Shown here: piece by piece, positions 7-63,768 of the stretch
Layout of the letters: the number at the start of each line of letters is the position of its first letter
Numbering within the stretch: position 1 is the stretch's first letter
Assembly (NCBI GenBank): GCA_027603945.1
Contig: JADIIU010000001.1
Location: forward strand, 310,001-374,000
DNA from: Terramyces sp. JEL0728
Lineage: Eukaryota; Chytridiomycota; Chytridiomycetes; Rhizophydiales; Terramycetaceae
Reading direction: 5' to 3'
Length of the DNA: 64,000 nucleotides
The notes under the pieces: generated by a model
Databases searched by the model: none
Seen by the model: the letters and a program-made list of their open reading frames with translations, nothing else
What the model was told of the DNA's origin: nothing
Translations under genes and position numbers: made by a program

Positions 7-1632
7 TCATTTTATTAGTTCCCCAACAGTGTGTTGGTATTCGCTAATATCCTTTATATGCATCCACCGGCTTGCATCTTTCCGCCTTCCAAACCCCCTC
101 ACACTGATTGGGTGTGCTTCAGTATTAAATACATATTCATCTACTACAGTCAAAAATATTTACGAGGCACAACATCATCTGATGAATAAAGCAAATACAG
201 GTATTTCAGAGTTTCGGCTAGAAAAAATGATTCCATCCTGTCACTTTGTTGCAGATTACTACTAAACCCGTGGTAGCCCGCACTATCTCTGGCATGCTGT
301 TCTAGAGCATCAATATAAGTGCTTCCATACGCTCTATAAACAGGGTCGTGAGAGATCCTCCACATGTAAAAAATAGATTCAATTGTTTCAGGGCTAATTA
401 AGAACAGCTTACCGAAGTGTAAAATGGGCATCAGAAATAGTCACCTTCCCGTTGAAAGCAGCCATGATCTCACCTCCAATCCCGTACTTGGACGCTTTGT
501 ACCCTTCCCAACATGCATCGGTAGCCCTTCGCGCAACATCCAAATAATAGGTCCATTTTCCGCGCTTCCAACTGTTTGCTCCTAATCCAAACATCCCGCC
601 AGTGAAGCAAGTTAGATGGTGAAATGTATTGCCAGAATGGCCATTTTGCTTATCAGGAAAGAATACTATTTCCCCCGATTCAACCATCAAATGCTTAGTA
701 ACGGCTTCAGCTGCTTCGTCATACCGCTGACGGAATTTCGGTTCTCCAGTAGATATCCATATTTTGAGCAAGTATTCATAAAACGAATCTACATCCGCCC
801 CAATGCCATATCTGTGTAGGTTATCAAATTGCAAACTTCCTGTATGGACATTGGAGGGGAATAAACCTGGATGTGGTTTATCGATCGAACGTATTTGGTC
901 CATTGCAAAGAAAACTGCATCTTGGTATTTCGGTTCCTGAGTGATATCAGATAAATACTGAAACTCCAACTGCAGAGTACCCATTGTTGCAATTCCGGTT
1001 GTGTGTCCGCTCTGCTTACCCCTATATTAACAAAAAGTACGTTTTCATATTCAAGTACATTGTTGGTATTCCCGTATTGGTATCGAATGCTTTTAACAGC
1101 AAATCCGCAACTTGCACTGCTTTTTCTATATATCTCTTGTCTGGGTCAAAATCATATGCAGATAACAGTCCCCCGAGAACCCTGATTGTGATTTCAAATA
1201 CAATAATCTCCTCATCAAAAGTGCCAACATCCATATTCTGCAAAACCAATTCTTTTGTTTCTTCATATTCCTTCACTAATCCCATTATAAATAGGGTATC
1301 TAGCGAATCTATCGCTGTGAAATACATTGTATTTGTCTTCCAATTCATCTTGGATTTTGTCAGTGGCTTTAATTCATCTGCTCCCCAGGCATAAACCTTG
1401 TAACCATTCCAAGCATGCTTCGTCATCTATATCAAACCCAAAATACTTTTCTAATCTTTTCCAGCATATCGGAATCAGATAGATTTCCTTGAATAAGTGT
1501 GTGTTTGGATTGGTGTTTCGGGTGGGTAATATCATAAATCACGGCTTTCGTGCTTTGTCCAGAGAATGAAACGATTATAAATCCAATAACAAAGATTACT
1601 ATCAGAAATATTAGTCTCTCTTTCGTTTTCAT
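7..1632 (-). CDS. ER class I alpha-1,2-mannosidase (GH47)
   Basis: Glycoside hydrolase family 47 enzyme that trims mannose from N-glycans in the ER or early Golgi. Five exons join across introns of 20, 19, 19 and 20 nt, giving about 515 aa, complete with stop. Visible family motifs are HAWNGYK and WGADELKP near the N terminus, GTLQLEF, the joined LRPETIES (split by an intron near 405-423) and the C-terminal EYVFNTEAHP (split near 150). The first ATG in frame is at 1632. It starts a short basic tail followed by a hydrophobic signal anchor (residues about 6-25), as expected for a type II membrane enzyme. Codons further upstream in this frame are not ATG. It acts in the same ER quality-control pathway as the U-GGT at 20570-25089. 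Identification is secure; the exact family member (ER Man I or Golgi Man IA type) is not. Confidence 0.93.
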
Positions 1633-1684
1633 GATTTGATTTAGTGCAGAGAAAAAGCCAAAAAGTGTACAGCTCAAATTTTAT

Positions 1685-4600
1685 TTAAAAGTTCTCCTTG
1701 TGGAATCTGAAGAGAGTTCTCTTGGATTGAGTAGTGTGCAGGTGCTTGTTTCTCTTTGTCGAGTGCAATTTAGAGGCGGCAGCTAGCTGTTGCGCAATTG
1801 GGTTTGGACCACACAAGAAAACACCAATCTCACTTCCAGCGTGTTTCTTTGCTTTTTCTTTAAAGATTCTATTCCAATTTGGCCGGCCTGCGAATTGATT
1901 GTATGCTTCAACTTTTACATTTTTCAAGTTTACTTCGCCAGTAACATACATATTGAGTTCCAGGTGATTGGAGAATCTGTCAATCTTTAGAATTTGGTCG
2001 AAAAAGTCTTTGAACGAATCGAATTCTGCTTGGTCCCTGCATATCCAGTAGAAATAAATTGACATGCAAGATCCATTGTCTTCACCTTGGGTCAGTTGCA
2101 TTTTGTAGGAGAGAGACTTGATAATTGAAATAAATGGAGTAACACCAATACCTGCACCGACCAGAATAACGGTTTCATAATCAAAAACTTCTTCGCTTGC
2201 GCTACCATAAGGCCCATCAACTCTGAGCACCAATCCGCTTGTCTCGTCTTCATTGTCAGTATCGCCTCCTAGTACTTCAGGCGTTGTAGGTGATCTATTT
2301 ACCAAAGGCATTTCGCCTGGTGATTGCTCTGCAAAGCCAAGGGTTTGGCGAAGGTTGAAAGTCCAGTCCATATCTTTTCTGCATCTAATATGGCATGAAA
2401 AGTAGTTGTCTTCCGGCGCTGAAGTAATTGTGAATGGATGGAATTCGGTTTCGTTGATTTCAGGCACACACAAGAACAAATATTGGCCTGCCTTGTATCT
2501 GAACTTTTTTCTTCCGCTGAGTAATTGCATTTTAAGGCTTAGTACATCTTTTCCAGTCATTTTTGCCTCTACAATTTTCACATCCAATTTTGCCCGTCTG
2601 CTTTGAATGTACTTTTCCAGCAGCAAGAACAAGATTGGGAACACTGAGAATTGCCAGAATTGGGATCCATGCAGCCACATAATAGCATAAATGGGCATCC
2701 ATAACTTGTGGATTTGCAAAAACAGCTTATATCCATCAAATCTATACCCAAGTATTGAATAGATCTTTCTTTTCAAGAAGGCAGTCAAAAACATTACAAT
2801 CATTAAAGTAGCAATGATAAATCCGGTTGGCCCAGGGACGTTTGCCAAAGCACTGATGTACAAAGGTACAGCCAAATAGTTTTGAGCGTAGACAAAGTCT
2901 GCAAAATGGCAACCAATATGTCCACAGGCTGCAATTGCAATTGTATATGCTGTCCATCTGTGGATGTTTAAATTGTCGTCCAAAGGAAGTTTATCAGCAA
3001 CAGCAGTGGTCCTAAGGAAAGACAAGAAGTTGCGCAAAACAGGGATGAGTACAAAGCAGAGATTGAAATCCAGCATTTTGCCAAAGCCCTTTGCATAAGG
3101 GTAATAAGGAAGCGGGCTGGCAGTCAAATTGATGCAATATCCATACAACCACGCACCAACTTGGCAGAGAACAAAGAAAACAAAGAAAAATACTAAAGGC
3201 TGGTTCCAAGAGTACCATTCGGCAAAAGTGGCCAAGAAAGGAACCTTTTCAAAGATGCTTTTTTTCGGAGCTGCTTCCAGCAAATCTGCATTTGAATCAG
3301 CGTCGCTTGGACTAGTGGCTTCGTCATCAATATCATTTGTTTTACACACGCCGTACAGTTGAGCCATTTTTGACTTTGGATGCTTTTTAGCATAAGAAAA
3401 TCCAAAGAACCCACAAGCTGCAGCAATGCCGATGCCTGCAAGACCAATACCTATACCGCCTCCGATAGTGGTTGGGTCTTCAACAACCGTTAGAGTTGTC
3501 TTTTGTTCTCTGTTGCTGAAAGCATTGTTTCTTGTCGACATTAATACAAATTTGCCAAGGTTTTCAGCCTGGACCAACCCAATATTCTGATAGGCAGAAG
3601 CTCTGTTTAGTGTCTACAATTAAACATAGCTACCTTGCAATTATTATTGTCATTTGTGTCGGTTGTGTAATAGTCACATCCGGTTTGATTCGAATATGCC
3701 ATTAAAATAATTTTGTTGTTGTCGTTGCTGAAATGGAGAGGAGTGGAATTTGTTTGTAGTAATGGGTTGAAAGTTGCAGGGTAGTTTTTGCCTAAACTTG
3801 GGATGATAACGATATTGCTTCTGTCAGTTCCTGTTCTGCCATTGCCAGCGTTATTCTGGTCGTTTGCATCGGAGCCAGTCCACTGCACATGCAGATAGTC
3901 GTTTCTGGAAACTTGCAAGTTTGGAGGTACGAAATCATATTCGACGGAAGGATAAGTTTGTTGTATGTTTCCTCTACGACCTCTCACATTCAGGTTGTAA
4001 ATGTTGCATGCCTCATTGGTTCTTAACCCGCAAGGAAGGGAAGATGGCCGCTTTCTAATTTGGAATACATGGCTTCTATCTTGGAAAGTTCTGCCGAATT
4101 GTGCAGTGTTTACATTTAATCTGAGAGGACCAGTAACGTTTGCGCCAAGACCAACAAAATCGCTTGCAGGGTTTGTCTTTACAGGGGAGTTTGCTCCATT
4201 AGCTGCAGCAAAGACATTCCACGAATCGGAACCAAAATCATAAGTAGTTACGTTATATCTAATTCTCAATACACAATTTGCTCCGTCGGCGTGAATACCT
4301 TGAGGAACTTGCCACATGTAATTTGGCGATTGTCCTGTGTTAATAGCGTCGCCATTATGATTGTTTCTAAATTAGTTTCGGCTACCTAGTTGTTGGACAG
4401 ATAGTACAGTTTGGAGGGCCAATATTCCAAGCACCTGAAACAGTCCAAGTTCCGAGGTTGTACTGGCAATCTTTTTGATTATTGTACAACGGATTGCTGC
4501 ATGTTCCCAAGTTGGCTACATTTTGAGAATTTTGTTGGTAGTAAGGACATTGCGTAGGAGTATCTGTGCACACTGCAATATCTCTCCAAGGCGTGGGGTG

Positions 4601-5241
4601 CCAGTAGGGATAATAGTCTCTTTCTTCGGGACATTCCAATCCATAACGAGTTCCAGCCGCGTTTTGTCTGGTATACTGGGCAGTTGTCCCTTGCAAATTT
4701 TGGTCTGCCGTGAACAGACCATTGTTTCTATTTCTAGTGGTGCATTCTGTATACCATTGTTGGTTTTCGTGCTGGCCAAATTGTGAAATATTGGCTGATG
4801 TAGGGTTTGTTGGAATCTTGTTTGTTGTTGAGCCGTCTCTCATTCCTGCAGTATATGTTGTGTCGTCGCACGTGTATTGCAAAATAATCTGGTTGTGCAA
4901 GAAAGGAGATTGGGAACCGTGCTGATTGTTCCATTCTATGTACAGCCAAGAGCCTTCGTAAAACTGCATGGCACCTTGCCCAGCTCCGGGATAGTTTGGT
5001 TGATACTGGTTGTTCCCGTCGGTTGACAAACAGTTTGGAACGCAATTATCACCATGCTAGCTTAGTATATCGTTACTTGATAGCCAGAATTGTCGTTATT
5101 TTGGCTGTTAAAGAGCCGCTGATTGTTTGTTACTGTGTTACTTTGTTCATTGAGCTTATTGTTAGACCCACGAGGATGCTGCATATAGCAATCGCCGCTA
5201 GCGTAAGCAACTAGCAAAGCACGGATAATGTACTTTGACAT
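1685..5241 (-). CDS. NADPH oxidase/ferric reductase-like flavocytochrome with large N-terminal ectodomain
   Basis: Membrane flavocytochrome of about 1165 aa built from four exons (introns 20, 19 and 20 nt). The C-terminal half is a NOX/FRE core: membrane helices carrying paired haem histidines (HRWT...HIGCH and IHKLW...WLHG), an FAD-binding HPFTITSAP, an NADPH loop GAGIGVTPF, and a CGP near the C terminus. The N-terminal ~570 residues follow a signal peptide (MSKYIIRALLVAYASG) and form a Cys/Asn-rich secreted region with motifs such as CVLRIRYN and YLHVQWTG. A glycine-rich membrane segment (GGGIGIGLAGIGIAAA) joins the two halves. Inference: it moves electrons from cytosolic NADPH across the plasma membrane to oxygen or metal. 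No EF-hands or N-terminal regulatory domain are seen. The start at 5241 is the first true ATG in the open frame. Confidence 0.85.
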
Positions 5242-5416: not shown

Positions 5417-7245
5417 ATGGGGAAGGGAAGAGACAAGAAAAAGAAGCTGAAAAAGAAAGAAGGAAAGGATGAAAAAGCCGTCAAACAAGACGAAAAAAAG
5501 ATTAAAAAATCAAAGAAGGATGAAGAGGTCGATGATATCGATGCCATTCTGGATGAATTCAGACAGCAACAGACGGACTTGTACAAGGTTACAGAAGAAG
5601 CAAATTGCTCTCCTCCCAGCAGAAGAGCCAATGCTTCACTGTCAGTGAATCCGTTGAATCCAGCTGAACTAATCTTGTTTGGAGGCGAATACTATGACGG
5701 ACAAAAAGTATACATGTACAATGATTTTTTCAAGTACAATATCGAAAAGAAGGAATGGAAAAGAATTACAAGTCCAAATTCGCCTGGACCTAGAAGTTCG
5801 CACCAAATAGTAATCACTCCTGCTGGATTGCTATTTTTATGGGGGGGAGAGTTTGTTAGTCCTAACGAAACAAGTTTCTTCCATTATAAAGATTTTTGGT
5901 AGCGTTTTAATTAATTCAGGATGATGGATTTGAAGACGAATCAGTGGGAAAAGTTGGAAGTGAAAGGCAGACCCCCACCAAGATCTGGACATAGGATGAC
6001 ACTGTGGAAGCATTTCATTGTATTATTTGGAGGATTTTACGATCAATCGAATGATACAAAGTATTATGACGATGTCTGGATATTCGATACCGTTGAATTC
6101 AAATGGAGCAAGGCAGATGTTCCCGAACCGAGACCGCAAGCCAGGTCTGCATTCCAATTCTTACCTTATGGCGACCAAATTATCATGTATGGAGGTTATT
6201 GCAAAGCTGCCACAAAGGGAAAGAAAGTGAATGGCATGGTACATGTTGATGCCTGGAGCTTAAAAATGTCTTTTGATTTGCAAGCTATCAGATGGGAAAG
6301 GAAAAAGAAGTGCGGAGGAATTGTCCCTGGGCAGCGCAGTGGATGTTCCACAGTATTCTTCAAAGGAAAAGGCATTCTCTTTGGAGGGGTTTCAGATATT
6401 CAGGAAGATGAAGAAACCATTGAAAGCGTGGTTCATGGTGATATGTTTCAATATCAAATTGATGGAAATAAGTGGTATCCACTGGTTTTAAAGTCGAAAG
6501 GGAAGAAGCAAAAGAAGGAAAAGAAAGTTGTAGTCGACAGTGATGATTCAGACGGGGACATTTCCGAACAAGTTCAACAAATGGAAATCAACAAACCGTT
6601 ATGGCCGGGAGAACGATTCAATACAATGATGGTTGTCATTAAGAACAACTTGTATTTGTATGGCGGGATTTTAGAAAGTAAAAGCAAGGAAATTACGTTG
6701 AACGACCTATGGACTATAAATTTGGAAAAAATGGATGAATGGATTGAAATTATTAAAGATGACGTTGCCAGTTTGGAATGGTATGGGGTGGATAGTGATA
6801 TGGAAGAAGAAGAAAGTGACGACGAGGAAGAAGAGCAAAGCGAAGAAAGCGATATGGAAGTAGATGACGAGTTGGTTGCAGAGGATGTAAAAGAGGTTTC
6901 TGACGAAGAAGCTGCGCAAAAAATGACACCTGAACAAGTAAATACTTCTTATATTAGTTGAAAGCCCAAGTAGAAAATGATCCCCTTCCTGGAGAACCGC
7001 TGAACGACTACTATGCACGAACAAATATTTATTGGCAAGAAAGGGTTCTAGAAATAACCGGTCGATCTGGAAAAGCTTTGCGAAAGAATGCGTTTGAGTA
7101 TGCATACAGGAGATATCAAGAACTTCTTCCACAAAACAAACTCTTAGAAGAGCAAATGAGAGAGCAAGAAGCTATAATGGCAGCCGAACAAGCAAAGCAA
7201 AAAGAAAAGGGAGAAATGGGTGTAGCGCGACATCGTAACAGATAA
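5417..7245 (+). CDS. Kelch-repeat protein, KLHDC4/Kel3 type
   Basis: About 595 aa in three exons (introns of 21 nt near 5900 and 20 nt near 6940). It starts with a very Lys-rich stretch (GKGRDKKKKLKKK) typical of KLHDC4 and yeast Kel3, followed by an FRQQQ segment and a series of kelch blades (LILFGGEYYDG, HQIVITPAGLLFLWGG, GHRMTLWKHFIVLFGG, RSGCSTVFFKGKGILFGG, NNLYLYGG). An acidic stretch (EEEESDDEEEEQSEESD) and a C-terminal region with YYARTNIYWQ complete it. The family is poorly characterised. The beta-propeller is expected to bind protein partners. Removing the introns restores KDFWMMDLKTNQW and a continuous C terminus, so this is one gene and not two adjacent fragments. Confidence 0.88.
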
Positions 7246-7254
7246 TATAATAAG

Positions 7255-9218
7255 TTACTTTTTATTCTTGCCTGCAAATTCTTCGAATTGCTTCAGATCT
7301 ACAGCGCAAGCAGGCAGCCAGTATCCACCGGGATTTTTAACAGATAGGACATTAGCTAACGCTTTCAAAACATAATCATATTTGATACAGTCCATCTCTA
7401 GATCATCCTGAAGGGCTAGGATACCTGCTTCCCGAAACATTACTTTCAGATCACTTGGGGTATAGTTTTCTGTAACGCTAACCAAATAGTCAATTTGCTC
7501 TGGGGTAAGGGCTGATTTGCTCTTGTTAGATAGCATCCTGATAATATCCCTACGATCTTCCACAGTTGGCAGCGAGATATAAAAATGAAAATCAAGTCTC
7601 CCTGGTCTAGTCAAGGCATCGTCAAGTTGATGTGGTCTATTAGTGCATCCAACCACTATAACACCGCTCAGACCGCTAATTCCATCCATTTCATTCAGCA
7701 AACTGGATAGTACACGTTCATTGACCCCACCAGCGCCATCTTCACTCCACTCTCTTCTAGAAGCAACAGCATCGAGGTCGTCTATAAATAATATACAGGG
7801 TGACGAATTCTTTGCAGTTTGAAATATTTTTCTGATTTGGTATTCAGAATCTCCCAGGTATTTGGAATATATTTGGGAGCTGGGTCAACAAAAAGTTACA
7901 TTTGAATTGAAATAAAATTCATTGACGACAGGTTCGACATTGCATGTACGAGGGTCGTTTTACCACTAATTTAGAAATAATTACCATCCACTAGGGCCGT
8001 AGAGCAGTATCCCCGAAGGAGGCTTGATGCCAAACCTCTCATACACCAGTGGGTTTTCAATTGGCCATGTAACTAGTTGTTGAAGCTTCTTTTTGATCTC
8101 TGAATAGCCAGCGATATCCTCCCAACTCACATCGAGCTTTTCAGTTTGGAACTCGTGTGTTACTTGATTTAAATAAATTAGAGAGCGGAATTCATCAAAT
8201 GACGCCGAGTTTAATTGGAAGTCTCTGTCTCTATTTTCAAACAAGACTCTGCCAACCAATAACGCCAAGTCACCAGCATTATAGCCCACCGTTGCCTACA
8301 GTGAAGTATAATTACCTTTGCCAATTGCTTTTTCAAATCTTCTGCAAGAGAGTATCCTTCTAACACAGAATGTCTCCCTTGAAAATCTAGCAGAGGTAAC
8401 TCTATTTCGCCAAAATCTGAAAAGTTGTTTGGTAATTTGGCAGATTCGCTACAACACGCAATCACTATTATCTGGAAACCCTGAATCTTCTTTAACTGAG
8501 TAAAGAAACTCTCCAGTATTGCGGTCAAATCAAAATCTTTCCAGTTAATCTCGGTGTCAAAGGCTTCCATCCCACTAACCAGTAAAATACATGGCCCAGA
8601 TAGCTGCGCTAAATCTATTATCCTACTCAACGGTGAACTAGTTGGTGACGCAGTAGATTGCGAATAATGGTGCAAATGTGCAGTCTCTTGGTGTACGTTA
8701 AAGTAAATAATTGGCGTTTGAAGTAGAAAAGATATTCGCTTTACCAAATAGTCTTTTCCGCATCTCTTGTGTCCTCGTAGTAGGAAAGTCTGTTTCTGTT
8801 TTATGCCAAGATGGTGATAGTTGAAATACAGATCTAGTCTTTCATATAACTCATCTGATTGCTTTTTGAAAACTGACTCTGAATGAGCTTGGATATGCTG
8901 AGATAGCTTCAATTTTATATCTTGGATATCCAGATTGTCCATTTCTTTTGTCAATTCATCCAAATCTATTTTTCCTTTTGGTTCAGAGATTTCCAACTGA
9001 TTGTCTTCAATGGACAAAATCTGTAGTTTCAGCGCAGTGCCAAATTGATTATTATAATCAATAATCATACCCACAGATAATTCCATTTGTCCAAGATCTG
9101 TTACTAGCTTATCAATCCATTCCTTTGTCTTGACGCTGAGAGAATTATCAATGGGATTTCCGGCAGCGGTGTAGAAAGGAACCCATGACTGATTGATATT
9201 CACAATTTCCAGAATCAT
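7255..9218 (-). CDS. Two-domain AAA ATPase (CDC48/AFG2/PEX1-6 superfamily)
   Basis: About 634 aa in four exons (introns 20, 19 and 20 nt). The first ATPase module (residues ~125-300) is degenerate: its Walker A reads GHKRCGKDYL and no clear Walker B acid pair is seen. The second is intact after splicing: Walker A GPSGCGKTT, Walker B ILFIDDLDA, sensor-like GCTNRPHQLDD and arginine-finger region RPGRLD. It also has NERVLSSLLNEMDG, common in AFG2 and SPATA5L1 proteins. A degenerate D1 with an active D2 is typical of Pex1/Pex6, but D2 looks more like the AFG2 group, so I leave the name open. Likely role: ATP-driven protein remodelling, either peroxisomal export or pre-60S maturation. It converges on the kelch gene with only 9 nt between the stops. 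Confidence 0.75.
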
Positions 9219-15400: not shown

Positions 15401-15547
15401 GTGCAGTTGGACTTTGTCGAAATAACCCATAAATTAAGGGCAACAAGAGCGCGTGTCACTCTATTCCTGCAAGCCAAGGAGGGGATGAAGAATGAGATAA
15501 AAAATATGCAACAACAGCTAGCAACATTAAGAGCGAATAAAATATAA
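12435..15547 (+). CDS. Sfi1-like centrin-binding repeat protein
   Basis: About 1003 aa in six exons (introns 20, 20, 21, 20 and 20 nt). Almost the whole length is helical and carries some 15 spaced repeats with a central Trp, each an aromatic or aliphatic residue two or three positions before W followed by basic residues (for example IRAYKQWRRF, LVWNAWMDY, KIFNQWQAAY, FELWNYNL, NTWKMKL, YLDIWQFYF, FGKWIKI, MNKWKEF). This is the pattern of Sfi1 centrin-binding repeats. The C-terminal ~200 residues lack repeats, are partly coiled-coil, and include a Pro/Ala-rich segment. Inferred role: scaffold of the centriole, basal body or spindle-pole-body half bridge. No centrin gene lies in this window. 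The ATG at 12435 is the first in frame downstream of the preceding gene. Confidence 0.75.
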
Positions 15548-28599: not shown

Positions 28600-29706
<1,107 letters not shown>

Positions 29707-40579: not shown

Positions 40580-42314
<1,735 letters not shown>

Positions 42315-53006: not shown

Positions 53007-55248
53007 ATGACACCACCTTGGTTATTTCCTCCTTCAGAGCCAATAAAATTAGGAAATCTTAATGCTATTGGCTATTCGAATGGTAGAATAATTTACAAAT
53101 CGAATATTTCCAAGGATATTTACACTCCAGTGACCAAGATACGGAACATCATGCCCAGAACGCACTTTTACTACAACCAAGAAGCAAAATCAGTAGACAA
53201 AATGGTGATGATATTCTAATGTAGTTTGACTATTTACACGAACTGGAAGGGGTTCAAGCAGATTATAGCTTGATATCACAGCACTTGACGGAAGAATTAG
53301 AGCTCAACCAAAGTGTCAGGAGATACGATAAATTTGCTGAAAACAGACTACATGTATATGAAAAAGACGATATTCAGTATTTGGCGGTTGCACGAAAGGA
53401 ACTTATGAATCAGTTGTGTATATACAAAATGGAGTCACTACAGACCATCACTATTCCAAAGAGGTGCACCCGCAAACTTGGGTTCAACACTCCTATATAC
53501 CAAATTGAATCAGATTCAACCAATATTTTTGTCCGGACGTTGGAGGGAATTCATTTAAATAGAAAAGGAACCTCAAAATACTCTACTTTGAATTTAAATT
53601 GCGATTTGTTGCACTTTGCACTCAATCCATATATCAAGTCCAAGGTATGTTTGCAGACGGAGGATAATGGGGTTCATATTTGGGATATCAACACTGATTC
53701 TGTGCTAGAGTGGAAAAAAGGGGAAGGTGAAAAGGTATGGCAATCAGCTAGATATGGCCCGCATCCCCAGATAATGTATTTATGTGATACGTCAAATGTT
53801 TATATTGGTGATTTGAGGGTAACGCTTATCTAATTCAAGACAGCTTCTTCCAAACAAACGAATTTGCATCGAATAAAAAATGGAAGCATCACAGGACTAA
53901 CAAAGCATCCCAGCGAACAATTCCAATTAGCATTTACAACCAATTCCAAGTGTTCAGTTATGGACTCGCGATTTACAACTCATCCACTTTTAGAATGGCA
54001 AGTTGCTCACGGATATGAACATCAAACTCATGTAAATTATTTCAGCAAGCCTATATCCAAAGATTGCAGTTCGTCATTCTATACTTGGGGAAGATTTTAT
54101 GGAGATATAATATCATTCTCCTACGATCAAACAGATTCAGCACCAAAATCAGTTCACTATCAAAACTATGAATCGTTCAAATCACATTTTTTGGTTAAAG
54201 ATAAAACTTCAGAGTATTACCAGTATGATTATATCCCTCATACATGGAATGTGGATACCTCACTAGAAGTTAGTTTTGAAAATCCTCAATGGGATCCATT
54301 ACTAGGGGTTGAATTTATTCAAACGGATAACAGTTTTACGCTATTGCAGTTGACAGCGACGGGCGAATTATTTGCTCAAGGTTATAGATACGGAAAGGAA
54401 CAGGAATATAGCCCTGCAGATGAAGATAGACTTGAAGAAATTGAACAAAAGTTTAAAGCAAAAATTGTAGCATTGAATTCAAAGATAAACATTCCTGATT
54501 TCAAGGCAACCCAAAAAGAACTTGCGTTGGGTAATTTGTTGAATAGTAACCCTCCTTAACATTAGAATGGCAAAGCGATTTGCTTGCTCCTTATTTTGAT
54601 TTACCATTTGCACAACGTAAAACAAAGTATATTCCGAAACTTAAAGTTGAATTACCAAAACCAAAGATATGCTCCAAATTTGAACAAGACATACATGAAA
54701 AATATACCGAAATCAAGCTCATTGATCAATCTTTGTCGGATGAAAGGCTGCCTTCTGCCAAATACAATTTCAATAGAGAATATGCAGAACATGCAAATGG
54801 CCAATTAAAAAAGGATTTAGAATTATCGACTTTGATTCATATTCCAGAACAATTTTGTCACGATATTGTCCTGTATGGAGGCACAGACTCTCATTCAAGC
54901 ACCATTACAAACCCAATACTAGGAGAAAAAGAACTGTTTGGAATGTCATCGTGGCTATTAGAACAGTGGCAAGCGGATTCTCCTTTTGAAGAGTACGAAG
55001 ATACACCTAGAACACCTAGACCTTTCCTGAACAAAAGGAAAGAAATTACTGCTTCCAACCGATTATCAAGTTCTCAGCCATCAGTGGTGACTTCCAAGAG
55101 ATCTTTGAGCCAATCCAAAAGTGCGTTGGATATTGGTTCCAGCAGAATGGCTCTCAGTCAACCAGTCAAATCTCGTGCAGCTGATCCAAATAAGAGAGGA
55201 CATAGTAGCCAACCCCAAAGGAAAGCAAAGAGGAAAAAGGGATTTTAA
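53007..55248 (+). CDS. TAF1C/Rrn6-like RNA polymerase I transcription factor subunit
   Basis: About 726 aa in four exons (introns 20, 21 and 20 nt). A beta-propeller-like region occupies the first half (VHIWDINTDSVLEW, VYIGDLRTASSKQ, LAFTTNSKCSVMDSR), then a helical region (HIPEQFCHDIVLYGG, SWLLEQWQADSPFEEYEDTP). The C-terminal tail is Ser-rich and ends in SSQPQRKAKRKKGF, the Lys-rich GF ending I associate with TAF1C and Rrn6. If right, it is part of SL1/core factor at the rDNA promoter, matching the ribosome-biogenesis role of Pwp2 nearby. The start at 53007 is the first ATG in frame. Confidence 0.62.
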
Positions 55249-55321
55249 CTGCAAATATATTTATTACTCTAATGCTGGCAATGTATCTCAATTTTCATTA
55301 CATTTTTTGCCAATCAAAAAA

Positions 55322-55748
55322 ATGAATGGAAGAATCCAACTAGTGTTAAAACGCTTCAATTCCAGCATAAAAAATATCCCACAATCCATAAATAAAGCAG
55401 AAACATGGTCACCATCCCAAGTGCCAAAAAGCGCAGCAACTTCAGGACCAAGGTACAGTTTTTTAACACAAGATTTGAACAAACGAATTGGGATTTGCAA
55501 GTATTTGGATTTTAATTTAGCCAAATCCAATGTCTGCGCAAGAGTTGATTGCACAAGTGCCTGTTAAAATGGTACATGGCCGTAAAGCATCTTGCGACGG
55601 GGGTAATTCAAATTAACTCAGGAGGTGGTGCGTTAGGTCATCCAAAAGTATACATCAACCTCGTATTTTCGTTTTAATTTAGGATACCGGGAAGCCAATG
55701 ACTTGCGGGTATTGCGGACTTAGATTCCAACAAGAGGAACATCATTAA
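55322..55748 (+). CDS. NADH:ubiquinone oxidoreductase 13-kDa Zn subunit (NDUFS6)
   Basis: About 115 aa in five exons (introns 20, 20, 19 and 20 nt), one of the most intron-dense genes here for its size. Presequence-like N terminus MNGRIQLVLKRFNSS. Spliced motifs GPRFEQTNWDLQPNPMSAQE and the zinc site CDGGGGALGHPKVYINLD...CGYCGLRF are typical, and the GPRFEQT part is characteristic of fungal homologues. It indicates that the organism keeps respiratory complex I, which is lost in several parasitic early fungi. The stop lies in TAATAAA and is 5 nt from the stop of the convergent ENY2 gene. Confidence 0.93.
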
Positions 55749-55758
55749 TAAATTTATT
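55747..55758. terminator. Palindromic bidirectional poly(A) signal
   Basis: AATAAATTTATT is a perfect 12-bp palindrome that supplies AATAAA on both strands. It overlaps both stop codons: NDUFS6 TAA at 55746-55748 (plus) and ENY2 TAA at 55754-55756 (minus). Confidence 0.65.
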
Positions 55759-56104
55759 GTTCTTGTTCTTGTAAAAACTTTCTTATTTTTGTCAAGAGTT
55801 CATTCCTGATGGTCTACATTAACGAGAAAGTACTTCTGGAATCATTTGGCGGGCTTTTGGAGATATTTCTTGAATCAATAAATCTACGGAAGCGTCTTCG
55901 TTTTTCTTTAGCACATCTGCGTTAAACTGATCTTGCCTTTACAGAGGGATTTCAAATCTTCTTTCCAGCCGCAGTCAATTAATCGCTGTCGCAGGTGCTC
56001 CTTTAGCCTGTCTTTTTCTCCGGTTTTCAACAATTTGTCTTCAATTATGGTTTTGAATTTGGTATTGTCACTGGTTTAAGATTTAGCTACTCTAAGGTTT
56101 CCAT
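55754..56104 (-). CDS. ENY2/Sus1, SAGA and TREX-2 subunit
   Basis: About 96 aa in four exons (three introns of 20 nt). After splicing: LKEHLRQRLIDCGWKEDLKS, LCKDVLKKNEDASVDLLIQE, ISPKARQMIPETIRNELLTK, closely matching ENY2/Sus1, a small helical protein shared by the SAGA deubiquitinase module and the TREX-2 mRNA export complex. No open frame over 60 codons marks it, so it would be missed by simple ORF calling. The second intron (55917-55936) begins GC instead of GT. Interestingly, yeast SUS1 is itself an unusual multi-intron gene. Confidence 0.9.
55917..55936 (-). other. GC-AG intron in ENY2
   Basis: GCAAGATCAGTTTAACGCAG, 20 nt, donor GCAAG, branch TTAAC, acceptor CAG. Splicing gives SLCKDVLKK, keeping the conserved CK of the family. 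A 26-nt GT-AG alternative starting 6 nt earlier keeps the frame but loses the CK. Confidence 0.65.
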
Positions 56105-56159: not shown

Positions 56160-57129
56160 TTATTTAGCTTCTTCAACCTTTGCTTCATCCTTCTTGATTT
56201 CCTTTACTGGGGGTTTATCTTGGGAATCTTCTGCTTCTCTTAGCACTCCTTTATTTTCAATCAAGTTGTGGAGAGCAATGATGGATCTAATCATTGAGGC
56301 CAAGTATATAATCAACAACTCGTCGTTAGTCTTGACAGCGAATGATTTGACAGCTTCTTCAATATGGACATTTGGCAAGAGATTTAACATGTCTTGCAGA
56401 TTATAGATGATTGCATGGTTGACAGGCAATTGTCCAGCCAATACCTTGTCTAAATATTGTCGGATATCAACCAAATGCTGGTAAAGCCCTTTCAGCGACT
56501 GTAGTTGATTGACGAGATTTGTTGACAAAGATCCAACCGATGTATCCTTGATATCACGCAGTAAATGCTCAACGCCGATTTCCTCTGCTTCTTCTGCCTC
56601 AATAACCGAAGGAATATGATTAAAAGTTCTGGTGGTTGCGGTTCCATCCTAACATTAAAAAAAAGTACATCGTGGATTTCTTCTACTGCAAAGTAGGCGT
56701 CGGTTGGAAGCCCGATATCATTAGGTTGCACATTTATGATGACCAAGACACAGTTTGGGTTGTAAGCTTTGAATAGTTCATTGATTTCCAAATCGCTAGA
56801 TCTTAATTTTGGTCCAGAGTGATACCAGCCGATAAATCTTTCTTTTGCGTTTACTTTACGGAACATATCATACATGGCTTCGTGGTAATTGTGGTCCAAA
56901 AACCATACAGAAGGGTCTTTTTCATCTTCTTCAAAAGGTACTAAATCAACATTAAAATACCTGCATAACTGTTCGCTACGTTGACTTTGTTTCCTGAAAT
57001 TTGCCCTAATAAAACCCCAACCACACGTTTTTTTGTATTCTTTGCCGAGCGATTGTAATGATCTACAACGGATAATAATACTAATGGATGAACTACCACT
57101 TCAGTAGGTACATTTACGGTTACTGTCAT
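56160..57129 (-). CDS. 26S proteasome lid subunit Rpn8/PSMD7
   Basis: About 309 aa in three exons (two 20-nt introns). MPN domain: [35 protein letters not shown]; it lacks the complete JAMM zinc motif, as expected for the inactive partner of Rpn11. The joined [17 protein letters not shown], followed by [19 protein letters not shown], is diagnostic. C-terminal coiled coil and a Lys/Glu tail. The stop overlaps AATAAA (AAATAAATATT). Confidence 0.95.
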
Positions 57130-57202
57130 TTTTAGATTACTGCAAGGGTTTGAAAAAATGTTGAAAAATTGAAAGAGTCTCAAGGATAGTTCTAAGTCTA
57201 TA

Positions 57203-60200
57203 TTATAATTTAGCATAAGATGGTGGACTGATGCACCACGATATTTTCTTGTATAAATAAATTGGGAGGGAAGTAACGGAAACTATCAGCGATACTTTCC
57301 AAATGAAGGAATACGAGGATATAAAATTGGAATCTAGTTAAAATAGTGTTACCGAAATAGTTGGGCAAGAGCATCATCGAGGCAATGTATATTATCATGG
57401 TTCCTATTTGCGAAGTCACCATAACTCCGTGCCAAGTATGCACATCTATTGCAACCATAAACAATTCGTTGAATATCAGTGCGGTAAAACTGATGCTAAC
57501 CACCCTGATGAATTCATTTTCAAACAACCAGATAGCAAGAATCATAATAGCACCTCCTTGATAGACGCTGATCAACAGCCATATAAAGAATGTCTTGTAC
57601 GACAAAGACCGACCTTTCTTTAATTCTTTATATAGCTCCGGATAAGTCAGGGCCGTGCTTTCGGAAATGTCTCGATCGTACACCAGCGAGAATACTGGAG
57701 CCATGGTGTAAATGGTTGTATATCCCACAAAAAGCATATCTTGGAACAGCGCTATGGGGGCGAAATAGAACAGTGCTGAAAAAACTGCCTGCATAATAGA
57801 AATGATCAACCTACATTAGCATAGTCTACCCTCTGTGAATTACAAAATGAGCTAGTTTAGCAGCCCGTTTGTACGAATTACGGCCATGCCATAGCAGCAA
57901 CCGATTCAAGTGTGAAAAGGTAGTGATAGAGAAATCAGCAGCCAAAGATGCTTGCATCCCTTCTTTGCCAACCAATCCTATCCCAACATGCGCAGATTGA
58001 ATCATTGAAACATCATTCCCACCATCTCCTATAGCACATGTGCGCTTATCGGTAGAGTTTTTGATCAATTTCACAATGTCTGATTTTTGGGTTGGGTTAC
58101 ATCGCGAGCAGACTACAACAGGGATTGATAGAGCCAGCGAGATGAATTCTTCGGGTAAATGGTCCAGATAAAACTGCAGTGATTTACCATCAATAATTAA
58201 GCATGGATCCACAAGCAGTCTTACGTTATCCAGCTCCTCAAAAGCTCCCTCGATGTTTTTCACTATCTTAATTTCTACTAACCTTTTGTAATCTGATGAA
58301 TAGGCTGGTAGCGCTCCACCAATTTTGAAGAAATGGCTATACATCGTGCTGTCTCAATCTTGTCTCCTGTCAACATCCATATTTTGATCCCTGCCTGTCG
58401 TAACAGTTGAAGTGTAAGTTTCACGTTATCTTGGAGTTTATCTTCAACCCCAGTTAATCCTAATAATTCCAAGTCTCGTTCCAAATAAGTCCCGATTACA
58501 GACTGGATGCTCTCTGCGCGTTTCTTTACCGCTGTTTTTGCTACTTTAAACCTCAAATTAGGTAAATAATACTGGCTTTGAAATTCTTCATAATGTTCAG
58601 GAGAGAGGATCTTTCTTCCAAAAACAAGAGTCCTTAGCCCTTCATTCGCCATATTTGAACATGCTTCGTCCAGCCATTCATTGTTCGATACTATTGCAGA
58701 CATGATGGAATCGGCACCTTTTTGGTAAAATGTAATCACTCCTGTTTTGGTATCCTTCAATATTATGCCCATTCTTTTCAATTCAGAGGTAAAGGGAAAC
58801 GAATCCAAAATCTTATACTCTAGAGTTATCCCATTGAAATCCAAACGGATATAGTCCAAATCTCTAAATACCAACTTCAACCCAACCGATAAAGCCCATT
58901 TAACTATTGCGATTTCATCTGGAGATGCTGCCTGATAAGAAGTATTCCCGCTTTCATCTGTAACTGGCGTAACCGTATGACATAAAGCCAATGCAGTGAC
59001 TATTTCTTTGACTCGATGTGATTCAACAGGGTCCTTTTGATAGAATACATTTTTCCCTGCACCTGGCGACAAAGCGTTATAAATATGACTGAACACATCC
59101 TGAATAGAATTTGATTCAAAAACTTCTTTGCCAATATGCAGCTTTTGAAGTTCCATTTCTATCATTAATATTTTCGCACCATTCTTGGTTAATGTGCCAG
59201 TCTTGTCAGTTAGTAAATAGTCTATCCGTCCTAATTCCTCTGGTATGGTGGAGGTTCTTACGATGGTATCCGGAATATTCTGATCCCTCATTATTTGGTA
59301 AGAGTAAAACGTTTTCCCCATATCAAGATTAACTCGTAAACTAGTTTTAGCTCAGCTTACCTAATAGGGATGATTGAGGAAAACAAGATGAGAAATCGAA
59401 AAACGTAAATGTACCAAAGCCCGCGAAACCCATCCAAGGCAACCATTGTAATCGAAAGAGCAAGGGTTACGGCAGCCAATATTTTCGATAACTGGTTTAT
59501 TTCAAGGTCCACAAGTCCCATTTTTGTCGATACAAAATTTGTATTCAATCCAGCCTTTGTGTCTTTTCCCGTATACACGATTAATCCTAAAGCTGCATCT
59601 GAAACCACAACAGTGTTCATCCACAAGGTGTTCTCGACATTCAGCGGGTCGATATGGTTTCCGGACGAATAATTCCATCTTATTGTTCCGATAAAAGAAT
59701 GGATATCCTTGTTTGGCTTTTCCGCTATATTAACTAAACGAAACCATAAATTGTAGCGGATTCGTCCAGTAATGAGTGGTTGCTCTGTTTCCTTTGTGAG
59801 GTTGCAACGGCAATTCTATATTTAAACAAACAAACCTCACTTTCCAATCAGTTTCTCCATCAAGCTGATCTGTTCTAATAAAACAAGTCCCTGTTTTGTC
59901 TGTTGTCCTCAACAGAATGCAATCTGCTGGCACTTTGCAGTTCTTTTCAATAATTATCAAATCGCCAACTTGGAGTTGAGAGCTGCGCACTTTTTTAGTT
60001 CCAGATTCAGTCAATCGTTCATACTTTTGGGAATTTGCTTCCTAAATGAATTTGCAGTCCATACCTGATCCCTGCAAAATCGAATATAGTCATCGTACGC
60101 TTCCTTTAGCATGGTCACCTCCAATACAAATATCAGCGGTCCGAAATATGTGATTATATATCCAATCTGTAGTTCCTTTATCAACTGCGATAATGCAACC

Positions 60201-60520
60201 AGCAGAAAATACAGGTTTAGAAAATATTTAAATTGTTCATATAGTACTGAGGGTATAAAGGTAACGACTGAATATTTCTGATTCTGCACGATATTAGGTT
60301 CCAATCCAGTTGATTGCTCTCCAAGGTCAATTATCCTTGCTCGCGGTGGTTGTTTCTCCCAGAACCTCCACGATTTTTTAGCAGGTTCAATCTCTGGAAT
60401 ATCATATTGATGAGCTGTTGGACTCGCAGTTTCAAAAGTTTCAAGTGGGATTGACTCTGAATTTAACGATACGTTCGAAACATTTAGGCGTTGGTATTTT
60501 GCTGATTGAGCTCCAAACAT
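57203..60520 (-). CDS. P4-ATPase of the Neo1/ATP9 type (lipid flippase)
   Basis: About 1051 aa in nine exons (introns 23, 20, 20, 20, 21, 20, 19 and 19 nt). Motifs: [10 protein letters not shown] (actuator DGET), DKTGTLT phosphorylation site, [21 protein letters not shown], and the ATP9/Neo1-specific [16 protein letters not shown] and [15 protein letters not shown]. The end PPSYAKL, recovered only by splicing the last 19-nt intron, is the Neo1/ATP9 C terminus. One intron (59159-59179, 21 nt) is in frame, and its removal gives TLTKNEMELQKL. It flips aminophospholipids in Golgi and endosome membranes; Neo1-type proteins need no Cdc50 partner. Confidence 0.95.
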
Positions 60521-60625
60521 GAAAATTTAAATTCACCTTCCAAAATTAATATTTCAACACTATAAAGATTCAAATTTCCAATATTATGGCTGCTTCAAGG
60601 TGACGTATTTATAATTCTTTCAAAA

Positions 60626-62797
60626 ATGCCGCAACGAAATCTCAAAAAGTATAAAGCACTAACAGTAGACACAGAAACTGGGTAAACGCAGTCAATTCCC
60701 ATTACGACCAGCTTAAAGCCAATCCAGATAAAATCGCCGTTGTTGAATCAGTAAAGAAGCAACAGGATAAATTAAATATGTTCTTGGCGAATATTATCGT
60801 ACAACTAAATAACAATAGGGTTCATCTGTCGAAATTAAGCTCTCGGACGAAAGCAAGTTTGAAGGAGTCTTTTGTGCAGCCAATCCAAACGATTTGTCGC
60901 TTTCTTTGAAGCAGGCAAAAAAAGTAGGAGACGCAAAGATTCATCCAAATTTGAATTTTTCAGGATCTACAGTTCATTCGTTATCAGTAAAGGGGCTCAA
61001 GAATGCAGATATTGTACGATCAGGTAGATTTTTCATTGATAAAGTTGGGTTTCAAACAGACACGGCTATTTCAAAGAATGCCCATCTAAAGGAAAGGGAA
61101 TTGGAAAAGTGGAAACCAAGCGAGGAAGTTGAATTAACAATGGATACCGACGGTTTGTTCTTCTAACGATAGGAAATAACGAACCGTGGGACCAATTTGC
61201 TACTAACGAACAGAAGTTTGGGGTATCTACAGATTTCAATGAAGATATGTATACTACAATATTGGACAAGTCTGGACACGATTTCAAAAAGAAGGAAGCG
61301 GAAGCAGCGCGCATTGCAAGGGAAATTGAAAAAGGAGTTTCAAGCAACCCACACGTTGCAGAGGAGCGAGGACAAGCTATAGCCCAAGCAGATTCAGATG
61401 AAGAAACAAAGTACTCGTCCGTTATACGAAAAACAGCGATTCAAACCAATTCTTCGAATGGGAGGCCAATATCCTTCCCTGCGGGCATTGGCTCTTCATT
61501 ATCCCCTACAAAGTCAAACTTGAAGCCACCTATTAAATCGGTAATCCCAAAACCTGGAGAAATTCAAAAGAAAGCACCGATTAACGCTCCAATGATCAGA
61601 AAGACTTCAATTGACCAAATTTCTTCAGTGCCAAGATTAATGAAGTCTGCAAATGCTGTAAAGCCTACGGTTTCTATACAGGAAAATCCGGTAAAAGATG
61701 GTCCAAAGTCTGCAAAATCTAGCGAACCACCAATAGACGGTGATTTACATTTAATTGTAGAAATCGCTCGAAGCTTTAAACCATTTTCCAAACATCTTAC
61801 AAATCACTTGATTGATCGCAAACAGGAGATTCTTAATGAAGGTAGAAGGGGTATGATTGAGAATCTCAAACAATTTTCTCTTGAATTTCAGATCCCTTCT
61901 TCATTAGCAAAGAAAGATGTTGAAAATAACACAAAAGAGCAGTTAAACAAAGCAGAAGAAAGATCGGTTTCTCCAACCAAGAAACCACTCGCTAAAGCCG
62001 CGGAACCAGCCAAAACTGTTCAACCTGGTGTCCCAACTGAAGTTAGAGGAGTAAAAACTAGTGCACCAACTTCCCACCCAAGACATGCGGATGCAAAGCC
62101 TCCAAAAGCTGCTCCTAGAAAGGAGGTTAAATCTTTGACGGCAGTAGAAGTCAAAGATGAAATTGCAAAGCAAACTGCCAAGAGATCCCCAAGCCCTCCA
62201 AAAGAATCCAAAAAGACGGTGGAGATACACAAACTGGATAGCAAAATTGAAAAGTTGTCAGAAGCAGCAGACTTGCAATCGGTTGTCTCGGAGGCAGATT
62301 CTCACGCTACAAACACCACAAATGCATCAAAGAAAATTTCAAAGCTGAATGCAAACGCTGCGGAATTTACCCCAAGTTCGTACCCTGCTTTACCGCCAAA
62401 TAACTTTTATAAAAAGAAAGAAAAGAATCACAAATTCAACAAACAAGGAGGACCGCAGTATTATCCACAAGAAGGATACTATGTGCCTGATCCCAACTTT
62501 AATCCGCAATATTATCCTCAGCCTGGCTATTATCCTCCACCAATGCGGGGCTATCCACAAGTCCCAATGCAGCCAGTGTACCCAGGACATTATATACCAC
62601 AAATGAACTATGCTATGATCCCTAATTACCCTGGAGGTATTTATTTATTAAATATAGGACCACCACCACAATTTGTAATGATGCCACCACCATATGGATA
62701 TGAACAATCACCTGAAATGTATCAAAATCAAAATGAAGGGCAGCCTGCTGAGGATGTTGTTGCAGTTGAAGATATAGAAAATAATAATGAAAATTAA
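60626..62797 (+). CDS. Ataxin-2/Pbp1
   Basis: About 689 aa in six exons (introns 20, 20, 21, 20 and 21 nt; the two 21-nt ones at 61024-61044 and 62637-62657 are in frame). Order: short helical N terminus, LSm domain (MFLANIIGSSVEIKLSDESK...FEGVF), LsmAD domain (DQFATNEQKFGVSTDFNEDM, AEAARIAREIE), a long disordered region, and a PAM2 motif SKLNANAAEFTPSSYPALP that should bind the MLLE domain of poly(A)-binding protein. The end is Tyr/Pro/Gln-rich. It regulates mRNA stability and stress granules. TGACGT at 60600 lies in the 105-nt divergent promoter shared with Neo1. Confidence 0.93.
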
Positions 62798-62821
62798 TGC
62801 TAATATATCCTTCCAAAGTTA

Positions 62822-63768
62822 CTACTGTTTTGATGAACTTGGTAGCATGCTTCCTTTAGTTACCAGCGCTGAAGATTTGCACTCTATTGTATCCCAGCCG
62901 TTAGAAAGCACTTCCATAGTAACCTTTTGAATTTTTTTGAAAATCATAGTCATAAATATGATATGCGACATTGCCATATTAGCTCCAACTATTCTATATT
63001 AACTACAGCTTGCCCAAAAGCAATGGATTCACTCCCAGTAAGCACAAATGAGCATCCCCACAATGCGAGTGCTATCCAATTGTTGAGCAGTGATGCTACC
63101 ACCCACACAAATAATGATTTGAACTTGCTTATTTCATACAACTGTTTTTTTGCAAGTCTATGTTTCCGCTTCACTTGTTCATAGATGCTCACAGCAACAT
63201 AGATTGAGTTCCAAGTTTCAAATACTACGCACATAAATGCGAGCGCCAAGTATCCCATATTGCTATAGAGGATCAGGAATTGAGGTCGCTGGTGCCCAAT
63301 AACGAAGATAGAACCCAAGGATCCGCTCAGCATAACGAGAAACAGCGGTGGTATACAATACTGTGCCATAGTTAGCCATTTGTACGAGAGAAATGAACTG
63401 ATAATAACAAAAGCCTTTAACAACTCTAGTTTCCTAGTTCTAACTGAATATTACCCTACGACAAGTAGCTGAAATCCGATGGCACACACCATATTCAACA
63501 TCCATCCAATAAATGGAGTTGGCCACAGCAATCCGTCAATCATTTGCATAATTTGCCATGTCAGTAAAATCGACAAGGAAGTGAATACGAAATAATACAA
63601 TTTTTGTTTAGGTCCATACCAACCGTGTAACATCAATATTATAAAGCATGTTGTTCCGAATGAATAAATACCCGTCATTATCATAGCGAATTTTCCAAGG
63701 GATGTCGATAAATCCAGTATATCTGTAGGGTTTCCATCGAAATCTATTCCGACAGTAAATGCAGACAT
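62822..63768 (-). CDS. Seven-helix membrane protein of unknown family
   Basis: About 301 aa in three exons (21-nt intron near 63440; 20-nt GC-AG intron at 62994-63013). Seven hydrophobic segments can be counted, the last (IVGANMAMSHIIFMTMIF) appearing only after splicing the GC-AG intron. The extracellular N terminus is short and acidic, loops are basic (EQVKRKHRLAKKQ) and the cytosolic tail is Ser/Lys-rich. The topology suggests a GPCR-like receptor, but I see no DRY, NPxxY or retinal-lysine motif, so no ligand or family is proposed. Confidence 0.65.
62994..63013 (-). other. GC-AG intron in the seven-helix gene
   Basis: GCAAGCTGTAGTTAATATAG, 20 nt, donor GCAAG, TTAAT branch, TAG acceptor. 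Splicing extends the protein by a further hydrophobic helix and tail to a stop at 62822. An 18-nt GT-AG alternative inside it would end the protein after about a dozen residues. Confidence 0.55.

What the first reader, a model, noticed from the sequence alone, without database searches (positions are those of the whole stretch)
7..63768. Genome-wide ultra-short spliceosomal introns (19-23 nt)
About 120 introns in some 30 genes fall almost all between 19 and 23 nt, with a GTANNN donor and a compact (C/T)T(A/G)A(C/T) branch site whose A lies only about 4-8 nt from the acceptor. In each multi-exon model the spliced length is a multiple of three and family motifs (HRDIKTNN, LRPETIES, NTDAEGR, CDIHG-type joints) are restored. 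Only nucleomorphs and some ciliates are known to me with comparably short introns; in an opisthokont-like genome this would be extreme and raises how the spliceosome fits donor, branch and acceptor on 20 nt.
Basis: partly seen in the sequence, partly recalled or inferred. Interest (0 to 1): 0.88.

Follow-up and report, generated by a model that had tools for sequence, protein, structure and literature searches.

The report
Chytrid fungus with 20-letter introns
Most genes of a chytrid fungus are interrupted by introns of about 20 letters, close to the smallest the splicing machine is known to remove, in a member of the fungus-animal lineage whose splicing parts, as far as they were found, look mostly ordinary.

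Summary
Confirmed. The window is on contig 1 of Terramyces sp. JEL0728 (Chytridiomycota, Rhizophydiales): my spliced model of its UGGT gene, 13 introns of 20-23 nt, equals the deposited protein HDV01_000165 letter for letter. A gene finder free to choose introns of 15-120 nt puts 97 of 156 GT..AG introns at 19-23 nt; 17 decoy dinucleotide pairs give 6-21. After training, 398 of 421 introns in 264 kb are 19-23 nt, mode 20. Geometry is tight: branch A at nt 14-15 of the intron, then 5-6 nt to its end. Homologs restore joints. In deposited proteins of Boothiomyces and Globomyces, 5 of 6 insertions at the same joints decode as retained 21-24-nt introns, so relatives probably share the trait. U2 snRNA, SF1, U2AF65, Slu7, Prp18 and the Cwc25 plug are present, but the Isy1 N-terminus, also altered in tiny-intron Stentor, is replaced. 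No RNA reads were available; U1 and U6 were not found. Ultra-short introns are known from ciliates and nucleomorphs; my searches of the held library showed no report for a fungus.

The parts
7..1632 (-). g1, GH47-like mannosidase (name by eye): introns 144-163, 394-412 (LRPETIES joint), 1022-1040, 1427-1446
1685..5241 (-). g2, ferric-reductase/NADPH-oxidase-like protein (by eye): introns 3614-3633, 4367-4385, 5057-5076
5417..7245 (+). g3, Kelch-repeat protein (by eye): introns 5899-5919, 6938-6957
7255..9218 (-). g4, AAA ATPase, Pex1-like (by eye): introns 7880-7899, 7966-7984, 8296-8315
9672..12387 (+). g5: intron 10003-10021
12633..15547 (+). g6: introns 12694-12713, 13262-13281, 13720-13740, 13996-14015, 14814-14833
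15578..16183 (-). g7, WW-like protein (by eye; low-scoring model): intron 16093-16113
19238..20295 (-). g9, protein kinase: intron 19689-19708 (HRDIKTNN joint)
20570..25089 (-). g10, UGGT, 13 introns: 21311-21331, 21495-21514, 21864-21885, 22012-22031, 22103-22122, 22354-22373, 22969-22990, 23220-23242, 23438-23457, 23535-23556, 24202-24222, 24594-24613, 24953-24973. Spliced protein identical to deposited HDV01_000165
26789..27740 (-). g12, Fes1/HspBP1-like (by eye): introns 27205-27225, 27320-27340, 27571-27589
28600..29706 (-). g14, protein phosphatase 1: introns 28714-28734, 29022-29043, 29221-29242, 29474-29496, 29629-29648; no gap over 317 aa against PP1-beta
30132..31705 (+). g15, pyruvate kinase: introns 30208-30227, 30415-30434, 30653-30671 (GT..TG, corrected by hand), 30838-30859, 31129-31148, 31566-31586
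31742..34434 (-). g16, PWP2: introns 31848-31867, 33482-33502, 34170-34188, 34284-34303
34631..35683 (+). g17, second PP1: introns 34683-34703, 34836-34855, 35087-35107, 35211-35230, 35592-35611; four positions shared with g14, the fourth intron in order is not shared
35738..36642 (-). g18, PWI-domain-like (by eye): introns 36212-36232, 36398-36417
36665..38251 (+). g19, leucyl aminopeptidase: introns 36698-36716, 36824-36843, 36941-36960, 37181-37200 (GT..TG), 37459-37477, 37730-37750 (21 nt, no stop, NTDAEGR joint), 37862-37882, 38120-38138; the two marked ones corrected by hand
39868..40506 (+). g20, phosducin-like (by eye): introns 39885-39906, 40009-40028, 40323-40341, 40419-40438
40580..42202 (-). 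g21, katanin-like AAA ATPase (by eye): introns 40787-40806, 40944-40962, 41228-41247, 41329-41349, 41868-41888, 42016-42035, 42154-42173
45640..47915 (-). g23: introns 47306-47325 and 47329-47348, separated by a 3-nt exon; the 34-nt 46827-46860 is doubtful
48085..49070 (+). g24: introns 48106-48125, 48307-48325, 48415-48434
49160..50564 (+). g25: introns 50127-50145, 50295-50313, 50372-50391
50663..52849 (-). g26, dynamin-like: introns 50981-51000, 51284-51304, 52065-52085, 52620-52639, 52719-52738, 52801-52824
53007..55748 (+). g27: introns 53205-53224, 53819-53839, 54546-54565, 55121-55142, 55453-55472, 55501-55520, 55603-55621, 55663-55682
55754..56104 (-). g28 (low-scoring model): introns 55814-55833, 55917-55942, 56071-56090
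56160..60520 (-). g29, P4-ATPase fused by the finder to an Rpn8-like gene (by eye): introns 56649-56668, 56941-56960, 57811-57829, 58263-58282, 59341-59360, 59725-59744, 59816-59835, 60042-60064; the 98-nt 57198-57295 is the fusion
60626..62797 (+). g30, ataxin-2-like (by eye): introns 60649-60668, 60799-60818, 61153-61172, 61740-61760, 62637-62657

Best explanation
These are U2-type spliceosomal introns shrunk, across the genome of the chytrid Terramyces sp. JEL0728, to about 20 nt. The usual one has a GTA donor; a yTnAy branch site whose A is nucleotide 14 or 15; and an AG 5 or 6 nt later. Splicing would give a 14-15-nt lariat loop and a 5-6-nt tail. Shown here: the length class, its geometry, and protein joints that homologs bear out; presence of U2 snRNA, SF1, U2AF65, Slu7, Prp18, Cwc25 and Isy1 genes. 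Supported by decoded insertions: the same introns in Boothiomyces and Globomyces. Inferred: removal by the spliceosome, which sets the length by two nearly separate spacings, donor to branch A and branch A to AG. The second equals Stentor's and may be a physical floor. The first leaves only four or five free nucleotides between U6-bound donor and U2-bound branch site. More tentative: the replaced Isy1 N-terminus relieves a clash with the tightly bent intron.
For: Length peak without any motif, against 17 decoys; in that untrained set 77 of 97 have the branch motif at the right distance, against 0-4 in each of eight decoy sets of 6-18. Trained set 398 of 421 at 19-23 nt. Branch A at nt 14 or 15 in 355 of 401, tail 5 or 6 in 377 of 401, correlation of the two spacings 0.007. 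UGGT identical to the deposited protein over 1415 aa. PP1 without a gap over 317 aa and 5 introns. Three more distant chytrids with no gap at 12 of 13 UGGT joints each. LAP score rises from 349.6 to 408.9 bits and PK from 293.1 to 305.1 when tiny introns replace the finder's long ones. Five of 6 insertions of 7-10 residues in relatives at the same joints are compatible with retained GTA..yTnAy..AG introns; background 0.08-0.32%. Spliceosome parts.
Against: No RNA evidence; the deposited protein is itself a gene model, and I do not know whether RNA went into it. U1 and U6 snRNA were not found, through the limits of the search, assembly gaps, divergence or interruption. Independence of the two spacings is not perfect: a pooled table gives p 0.015. 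Two homology-backed introns end in TG, not AG. One of the six insertions does not decode as an intron, and a second lies in a stretch where other homologs also carry extra residues. The Isy1 start is complicated by tandem intron-like pieces. Cwc25 is unchanged, against a general steric-clash account.
Confidence: 0.95

Rival explanations
1. Gene-model artefact: the 20-nt pieces are chance GT..AG strings chosen to join frames, or assembly errors.
For: Decoy pairs also give 6-21 such pieces, mean about 13, so perhaps one in eight of the untrained calls is false.
Against: Decoy control; branch motif at the right distance in 77 of 97 introns chosen without it; identical deposited protein; homologs without gaps; decoded copies at the same joints in three other genomes.
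Confidence: 0.02
2. The pieces stay in the mRNA and the ribosome skips them, or a frame shift deals with them.
For: Most are not multiples of three (305 of 401), and no RNA data were at hand.
Against: GT..AG ends, a yTnAy branch site matching a canonical U2 snRNA and a set of splicing proteins. Structures known for bypassing were not looked for.
Confidence: 0.01
3. Minor (U12-type) introns.
For: Branch motifs such as TTAAC sit close to the acceptor in both kinds (recalled).
Against: The commonest donors are GTAATT and GTATTT, not RTATCCTT (recalled consensus), with little conservation after +3, and U2 snRNA is present. U11, U12, U4atac and U6atac were not searched for in the genome; the window alone has no Rfam match.
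Confidence: 0.01
4. Ordinary spliceosome, no adaptation: the introns simply drifted down to the floor that any spliceosome could handle, and the Isy1 N-terminus is unrelated drift.
For: SF1, U2AF65, Slu7, Prp18 and the Cwc25 plug are kept; the Isy1 body is also diverged (69 of 135 identical to Fimicolochytrium).
Against: The Isy1 N-terminus is 6 of 17 identical while Homolaphlyctis, with a body of 74 of 135, keeps 16 of 17; the same N-terminus is reported as non-conserved in Stentor (PMC9505925, section 2.6).
Confidence: 0.5

Closest known systems
Stentor coeruleus 15-16-nt introns (PMC9505925; abstract, introduction, sections 2.1, part of 2.2, 2.4-2.6 and table passages read)
   Same: One very narrow length class, firm GTA donors, branch A usually 5 nt from the end, Isy1 N-terminus not conserved, SF1 and U2AF detected.
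   Different: Stentor: branch A at nt 10 of 15, no strong branch consensus, 18% of genes with introns, Cwc25 plug changed, Slu7 and Prp18 not detected. Here: branch A at nt 14-15, strong yTnAy, 103 of 122 gene models with introns, Cwc25 plug, Slu7 and Prp18 kept.
Bigelowiella natans nucleomorph introns (passages in PMC5014332 and PMC12316389)
   Same: Length about 18-20 nt, one size class.
   Different: A relict endosymbiont nucleus, not a fungal genome; its branch sites were not compared here.
Paramecium introns (PMC12862383, passages)
   Same: Ultra-short, U2-type.
   Different: Median 24-25 nt, with a range of 15 to 100 nt in P. bursaria.
Trichomonas vaginalis type B introns (PMC12316389, passages)
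   Same: About 23-25 nt with a branch motif close to the acceptor.
   Different: Only 24 such introns in an intron-poor parasite.

Membership tests
U2-type spliceosomal introns | GT donor and AG acceptor | tested here: met
   GT..AG stands out against 17 decoys; two introns, in PK and LAP, end in TG
U2-type spliceosomal introns | branch site able to pair with U2 snRNA | tested here: met
   yTnAy in at least 328 of 401 introns (sum over the 30 motifs listed); one U2 gene, 140.2 bits, with the GTAGTA stretch
U2-type spliceosomal introns | branch-site and acceptor factors SF1, U2AF65, Slu7, Prp18 | tested here: met
   (U2AF65 best match 251.7 bits, under its whole-protein cut-off of 310.3; the search goes exon by exon)
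U2-type spliceosomal introns | U1 and U6 snRNA genes | tested here: inconclusive
   no U1 match; two U6 matches of 27 bits, below the cut-off, one read and by eye inside coding sequence; two U6 patterns without a hit; only top candidates are scored. U4 and U5 were not searched
U2-type spliceosomal introns | removal from RNA as a lariat | not testable with these tools
   no RNA reads on hand
ultra-short-intron genomes | nearly all introns at or below about 25 nt | tested here: met
   401 of 421 at or below 24 nt in the sample; at least two of the longer ones are wrong calls. Sample: 264 kb of 15.0 Mb
U12-type introns | RTATCCTT donor | tested here: not met
   donor matrix and hexamers; consensus recalled

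The most novel reading that the evidence does not exclude
Chytrids of the Terramyces-Boothiomyces-Globomyces group have independently reached the spliceosome's minimum intron, and they did so by rebuilding the Isy1 N-terminus that reaches the branch helix, the same part that is altered in Stentor. A floor of 5-6 nt from branch A to acceptor and a loop of 10 to 15 nt would then be general limits, and Isy1 a length gate for introns.
Probability: 0.3. Interest if true: 0.88.

Novelty: new variant of a known kind. Interest (0 to 1): 0.76.

Why it matters
It brings the question of the smallest removable intron into the fungus-animal lineage, with splicing proteins close enough to the yeast and human ones for structures to be compared. 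Because close relatives with tiny introns and more distant chytrids can be compared, the order of events (introns shrink first, or Isy1 changes first) could be read from genomes. There is also a practical side: deposited proteins of relatives seem to carry retained tiny introns, so gene catalogues of this group need checking.

Tried and rejected
Rejected: Intoshia, an aphelid or another small opisthokont genome as source (first guesses from genome size; homologs point to Terramycetaceae). The 49-nt (PK) and 98-nt (LAP) introns of my finder. U6 candidates (the one read, L030, lies by eye in coding sequence; the other was not read). Loss of Slu7 or Prp18 as an explanation for the short tail: both present. 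A general steric-clash account through Cwc25: its plug is intact. TG acceptors as a frequent class: with TG allowed 5 introns appear, no more than with TT (5) and few more than with AA, CT or GA (3 each). One 10-aa insertion in Globomyces at joint 855 does not decode as an intron. The corrected PK model found nothing at my first, too strict threshold of 1e-90; repeated at 1e-82.

Led nowhere: paper searches for introns of chytrids and aphelids (two of the listings are short excerpts, 20 of 3,999 and 25 of 276); one genome paper not held; a 590-species intron survey, searched for passages, has no occurrence of 'chytrid' in its main text. Independence of the two spacings: supported by the correlation, not perfectly by a pooled table.

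Left out before counts: 20 of 421 introns outside 18-24 nt for the branch analysis. Of 14 gaps at UGGT joints in three relatives, 7 are deletions and one is a 5-aa insertion; these 8 were not tested, and the six insertions tested were picked by eye. Of seven more distant UGGT hits three were aligned; of 29 Isy1 hits eleven were aligned.
Full report
What it is. The window lies in contig C1 (520,119 bases) of a 15.0-Mb genome in 231 contigs. PWP2 from the window is 94% identical to Boothiomyces macroporosus, Isy1 from the same genome 93% to Boothiomyces sp. JEL0838, and UGGT 100% over 1415 residues to HDV01_000165 of Terramyces sp. JEL0728, whose record lies on a contig of exactly 520,119 bases. 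The source is therefore Terramyces sp. JEL0728, family Terramycetaceae, order Rhizophydiales, phylum Chytridiomycota. Soil and saprotrophic habit are recalled, not tested.

Is the length class real? Without any branch motif or length preference, a codon-based gene finder allowed to use any GT..AG piece of 15-120 nt chose 156 introns in 264 kb (the window plus 20 samples of 10 kb), of which 97 are 19-23 nt. The same finder with 17 other dinucleotide pairs chose 6-21 in that range, mean about 13. Of the 97, 88 begin GTA and 77 have yTnAy with 5 or 6 nt after its A; in eight of the decoy sets the latter count is 0-4 of 6-18. After five rounds of training on its own introns the finder gives 421 introns in 122 genes: 83 of 19, 185 of 20, 93 of 21, 28 of 22 and 9 of 23 nt, and 23 of other lengths. 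A plain count of GTA..yTRAy..AG strings by length peaks at 20 nt (161, against 18-42 per length from 15 to 18 and from 23 to 40 nt). In the window: 116 introns in 26 of 30 models, 110 of them 19-23 nt.

Are the joints right? PP1 aligns with PP1-beta of a solved structure over 317 residues without a gap across five introns. The two PP1 genes of the window share four intron positions with different intron sequences and lengths, and each reads straight through the place of the other's remaining intron. UGGT equals the deposited protein letter for letter; that protein is a gene model, so this is agreement of two predictions. Three more distant chytrids have no gap at 12 of 13 joints each, the exception lying in a variable stretch. 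PWP2 has no gap at any of 4 joints against three of six homologs, and at one or two joints against the other three, whose records are cut short there. Where my finder had used long introns, homology asks for tiny ones: leucyl aminopeptidase rises from 349.6 to 408.9 bits with a 20-nt and a stop-free 21-nt intron, pyruvate kinase from 293.1 to 305.1 bits with a 19-nt intron in place of a 49-nt one.

Evidence from relatives that the finder never saw. Deposited UGGT proteins of Boothiomyces sp. JEL0866, B. macroporosus and Globomyces sp. JEL0801 show gaps at 6, 2 and 6 of the 13 Terramyces joints, while 8, 4 and 17% of all positions lie near a gap. Of these 14 gaps 7 are deletions, one is a 5-residue insertion and six are insertions of 7-10 residues. 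Five of the six can be back-translated, in the phase of the Terramyces intron, as a piece that begins GTA, ends AG and has yTnAy with six nucleotides after its A (4-7 were allowed); of about 16,000 windows of the same proteins 0.08-0.32% can. The sixth, in Globomyces at joint 855, cannot. One of the five, at joint 151, lies where other homologs also carry extra residues. So relatives very probably have introns of 21-24 nt at the same places, and their public models retain some of them by mistake. The trait would be at least as old as the split of Terramycetaceae and Globomyces. The relatives' DNA was not on hand.

Anatomy. Of 401 introns of 18-24 nt, the branch A is nucleotide 14 or 15 in 355, and 5 or 6 nt follow it in 377. 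The two spacings are uncorrelated (r 0.007), though a pooled table hints at a weak link (p 0.015). Only GTA is firm in the donor; +5 is T in 49% and G in 17%. There is no room for a pyrimidine tract after the branch site. Introns are 30% GC; density is 2.08 per kb of coding sequence; 103 of 122 gene models have introns.

The machine. One U2 gene with the usual branch-pairing stretch; SF1, U2AF65, Slu7 and Prp18. In Stentor, with introns of 15-16 nt, the published survey detected no Slu7 or Prp18, and reports a changed Cwc25 plug and a non-conserved Isy1 N-terminus (PMC9505925, section 2.6 and table passages). Here Cwc25 begins MGGGDLNLKKSWHP as in human. Isy1 does not begin with MARNEEKAQSML: it begins MAPKTLAQKQE, also in Boothiomyces sp. 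JEL0838. Over the first 17 positions it shares 6 with Fimicolochytrium; Globomyces shares 10; Homolaphlyctis (same order, recalled) 16; three other fungi 15-17; Capsaspora 15; two animals 10; B. salamandrivorans shares 7, but its deposited model starts late (11 of the 29 hits were aligned). The human and yeast alignments start only at residues 38 and 41 of the Terramyces protein. The exact Terramyces sequence after residue 11 is uncertain because three intron-like pieces follow each other there. U1 and U6 were not found; that search scores only top candidates, so this does not show absence. U4 and U5 were not searched.

How it most likely works. Shown: sequence, geometry and parts list. Inferred: U6 pairs with nt 4-6 and U2 with the branch site, leaving four or five free nucleotides between them; the AG is taken at 5-6 nt from the branch A. 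Equality of the tail with Stentor (5 nt), reached in a distant lineage, suggests a physical floor for docking the acceptor, while the loop can vary from 10 to 15 nt. A changed Isy1 N-terminus in both is the most interesting common change and could make room for the tight bend; that is a hypothesis with modest support.

Known or new. Ultra-short introns are known: Stentor 15-16 nt, nucleomorphs 18-20 nt, Paramecium about 25 nt, a few of 23-25 nt in Trichomonas (papers read in part). Searches of the held library for introns of chytrids, Rhizophydiales, Boothiomyces, Globomyces, Terramyces or aphelids listed no title or abstract that reports such introns in a fungus; some listings were capped, the papers themselves were mostly not opened, and the library lacks most subscription papers. 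At least one deposited gene model (UGGT) already contains such introns.

Noticed in passing
window 37181-37200 and 30653-30671: Two introns end in TG instead of AG yet have normal length and branch site, and protein homology asks for them. A scan of 264 kb shows TG no more often than TT, so a read or allele error is possible.
   Followed up: partly
window 47306-47348; L048 about 1690-1760: Tandem ultra-short introns separated by an exon of 3 nt (g23) or, in one reading, by exons of 1 and 3 nt (start of Isy1); nested or alternative splicing cannot be excluded.
   Followed up: partly
L044/L045 (C30, C33), L004/L005 (C44), L002/L003 (C90): Near-identical copies of about 2.7-3.7 kb within the fetched pieces, 98-99% alike, within or between contigs: recent segmental duplications or uncollapsed alleles.
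   Followed up: no
Deposited proteins P0151, P0152, P0153: Public UGGT models of Boothiomyces and Globomyces seem to retain tiny introns as 7-8-residue insertions, or lose residues at the same joints.
   Followed up: yes
window 28600-29706 and 34631-35683: Two PP1 genes 5 kb apart share four intron positions, with intron sequences that look unrelated beyond the splice signals.
   Followed up: partly
L048 about 1790-1827: Isy1 and an ATG12-like gene (by eye) start about 30 bases apart on opposite strands, a very compact divergent pair.
   Followed up: no
window 1685-5241: A gene model joins a secreted, cysteine-containing N-terminal half to a ferric-reductase/NADPH-oxidase-like half (by eye).
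   Followed up: no
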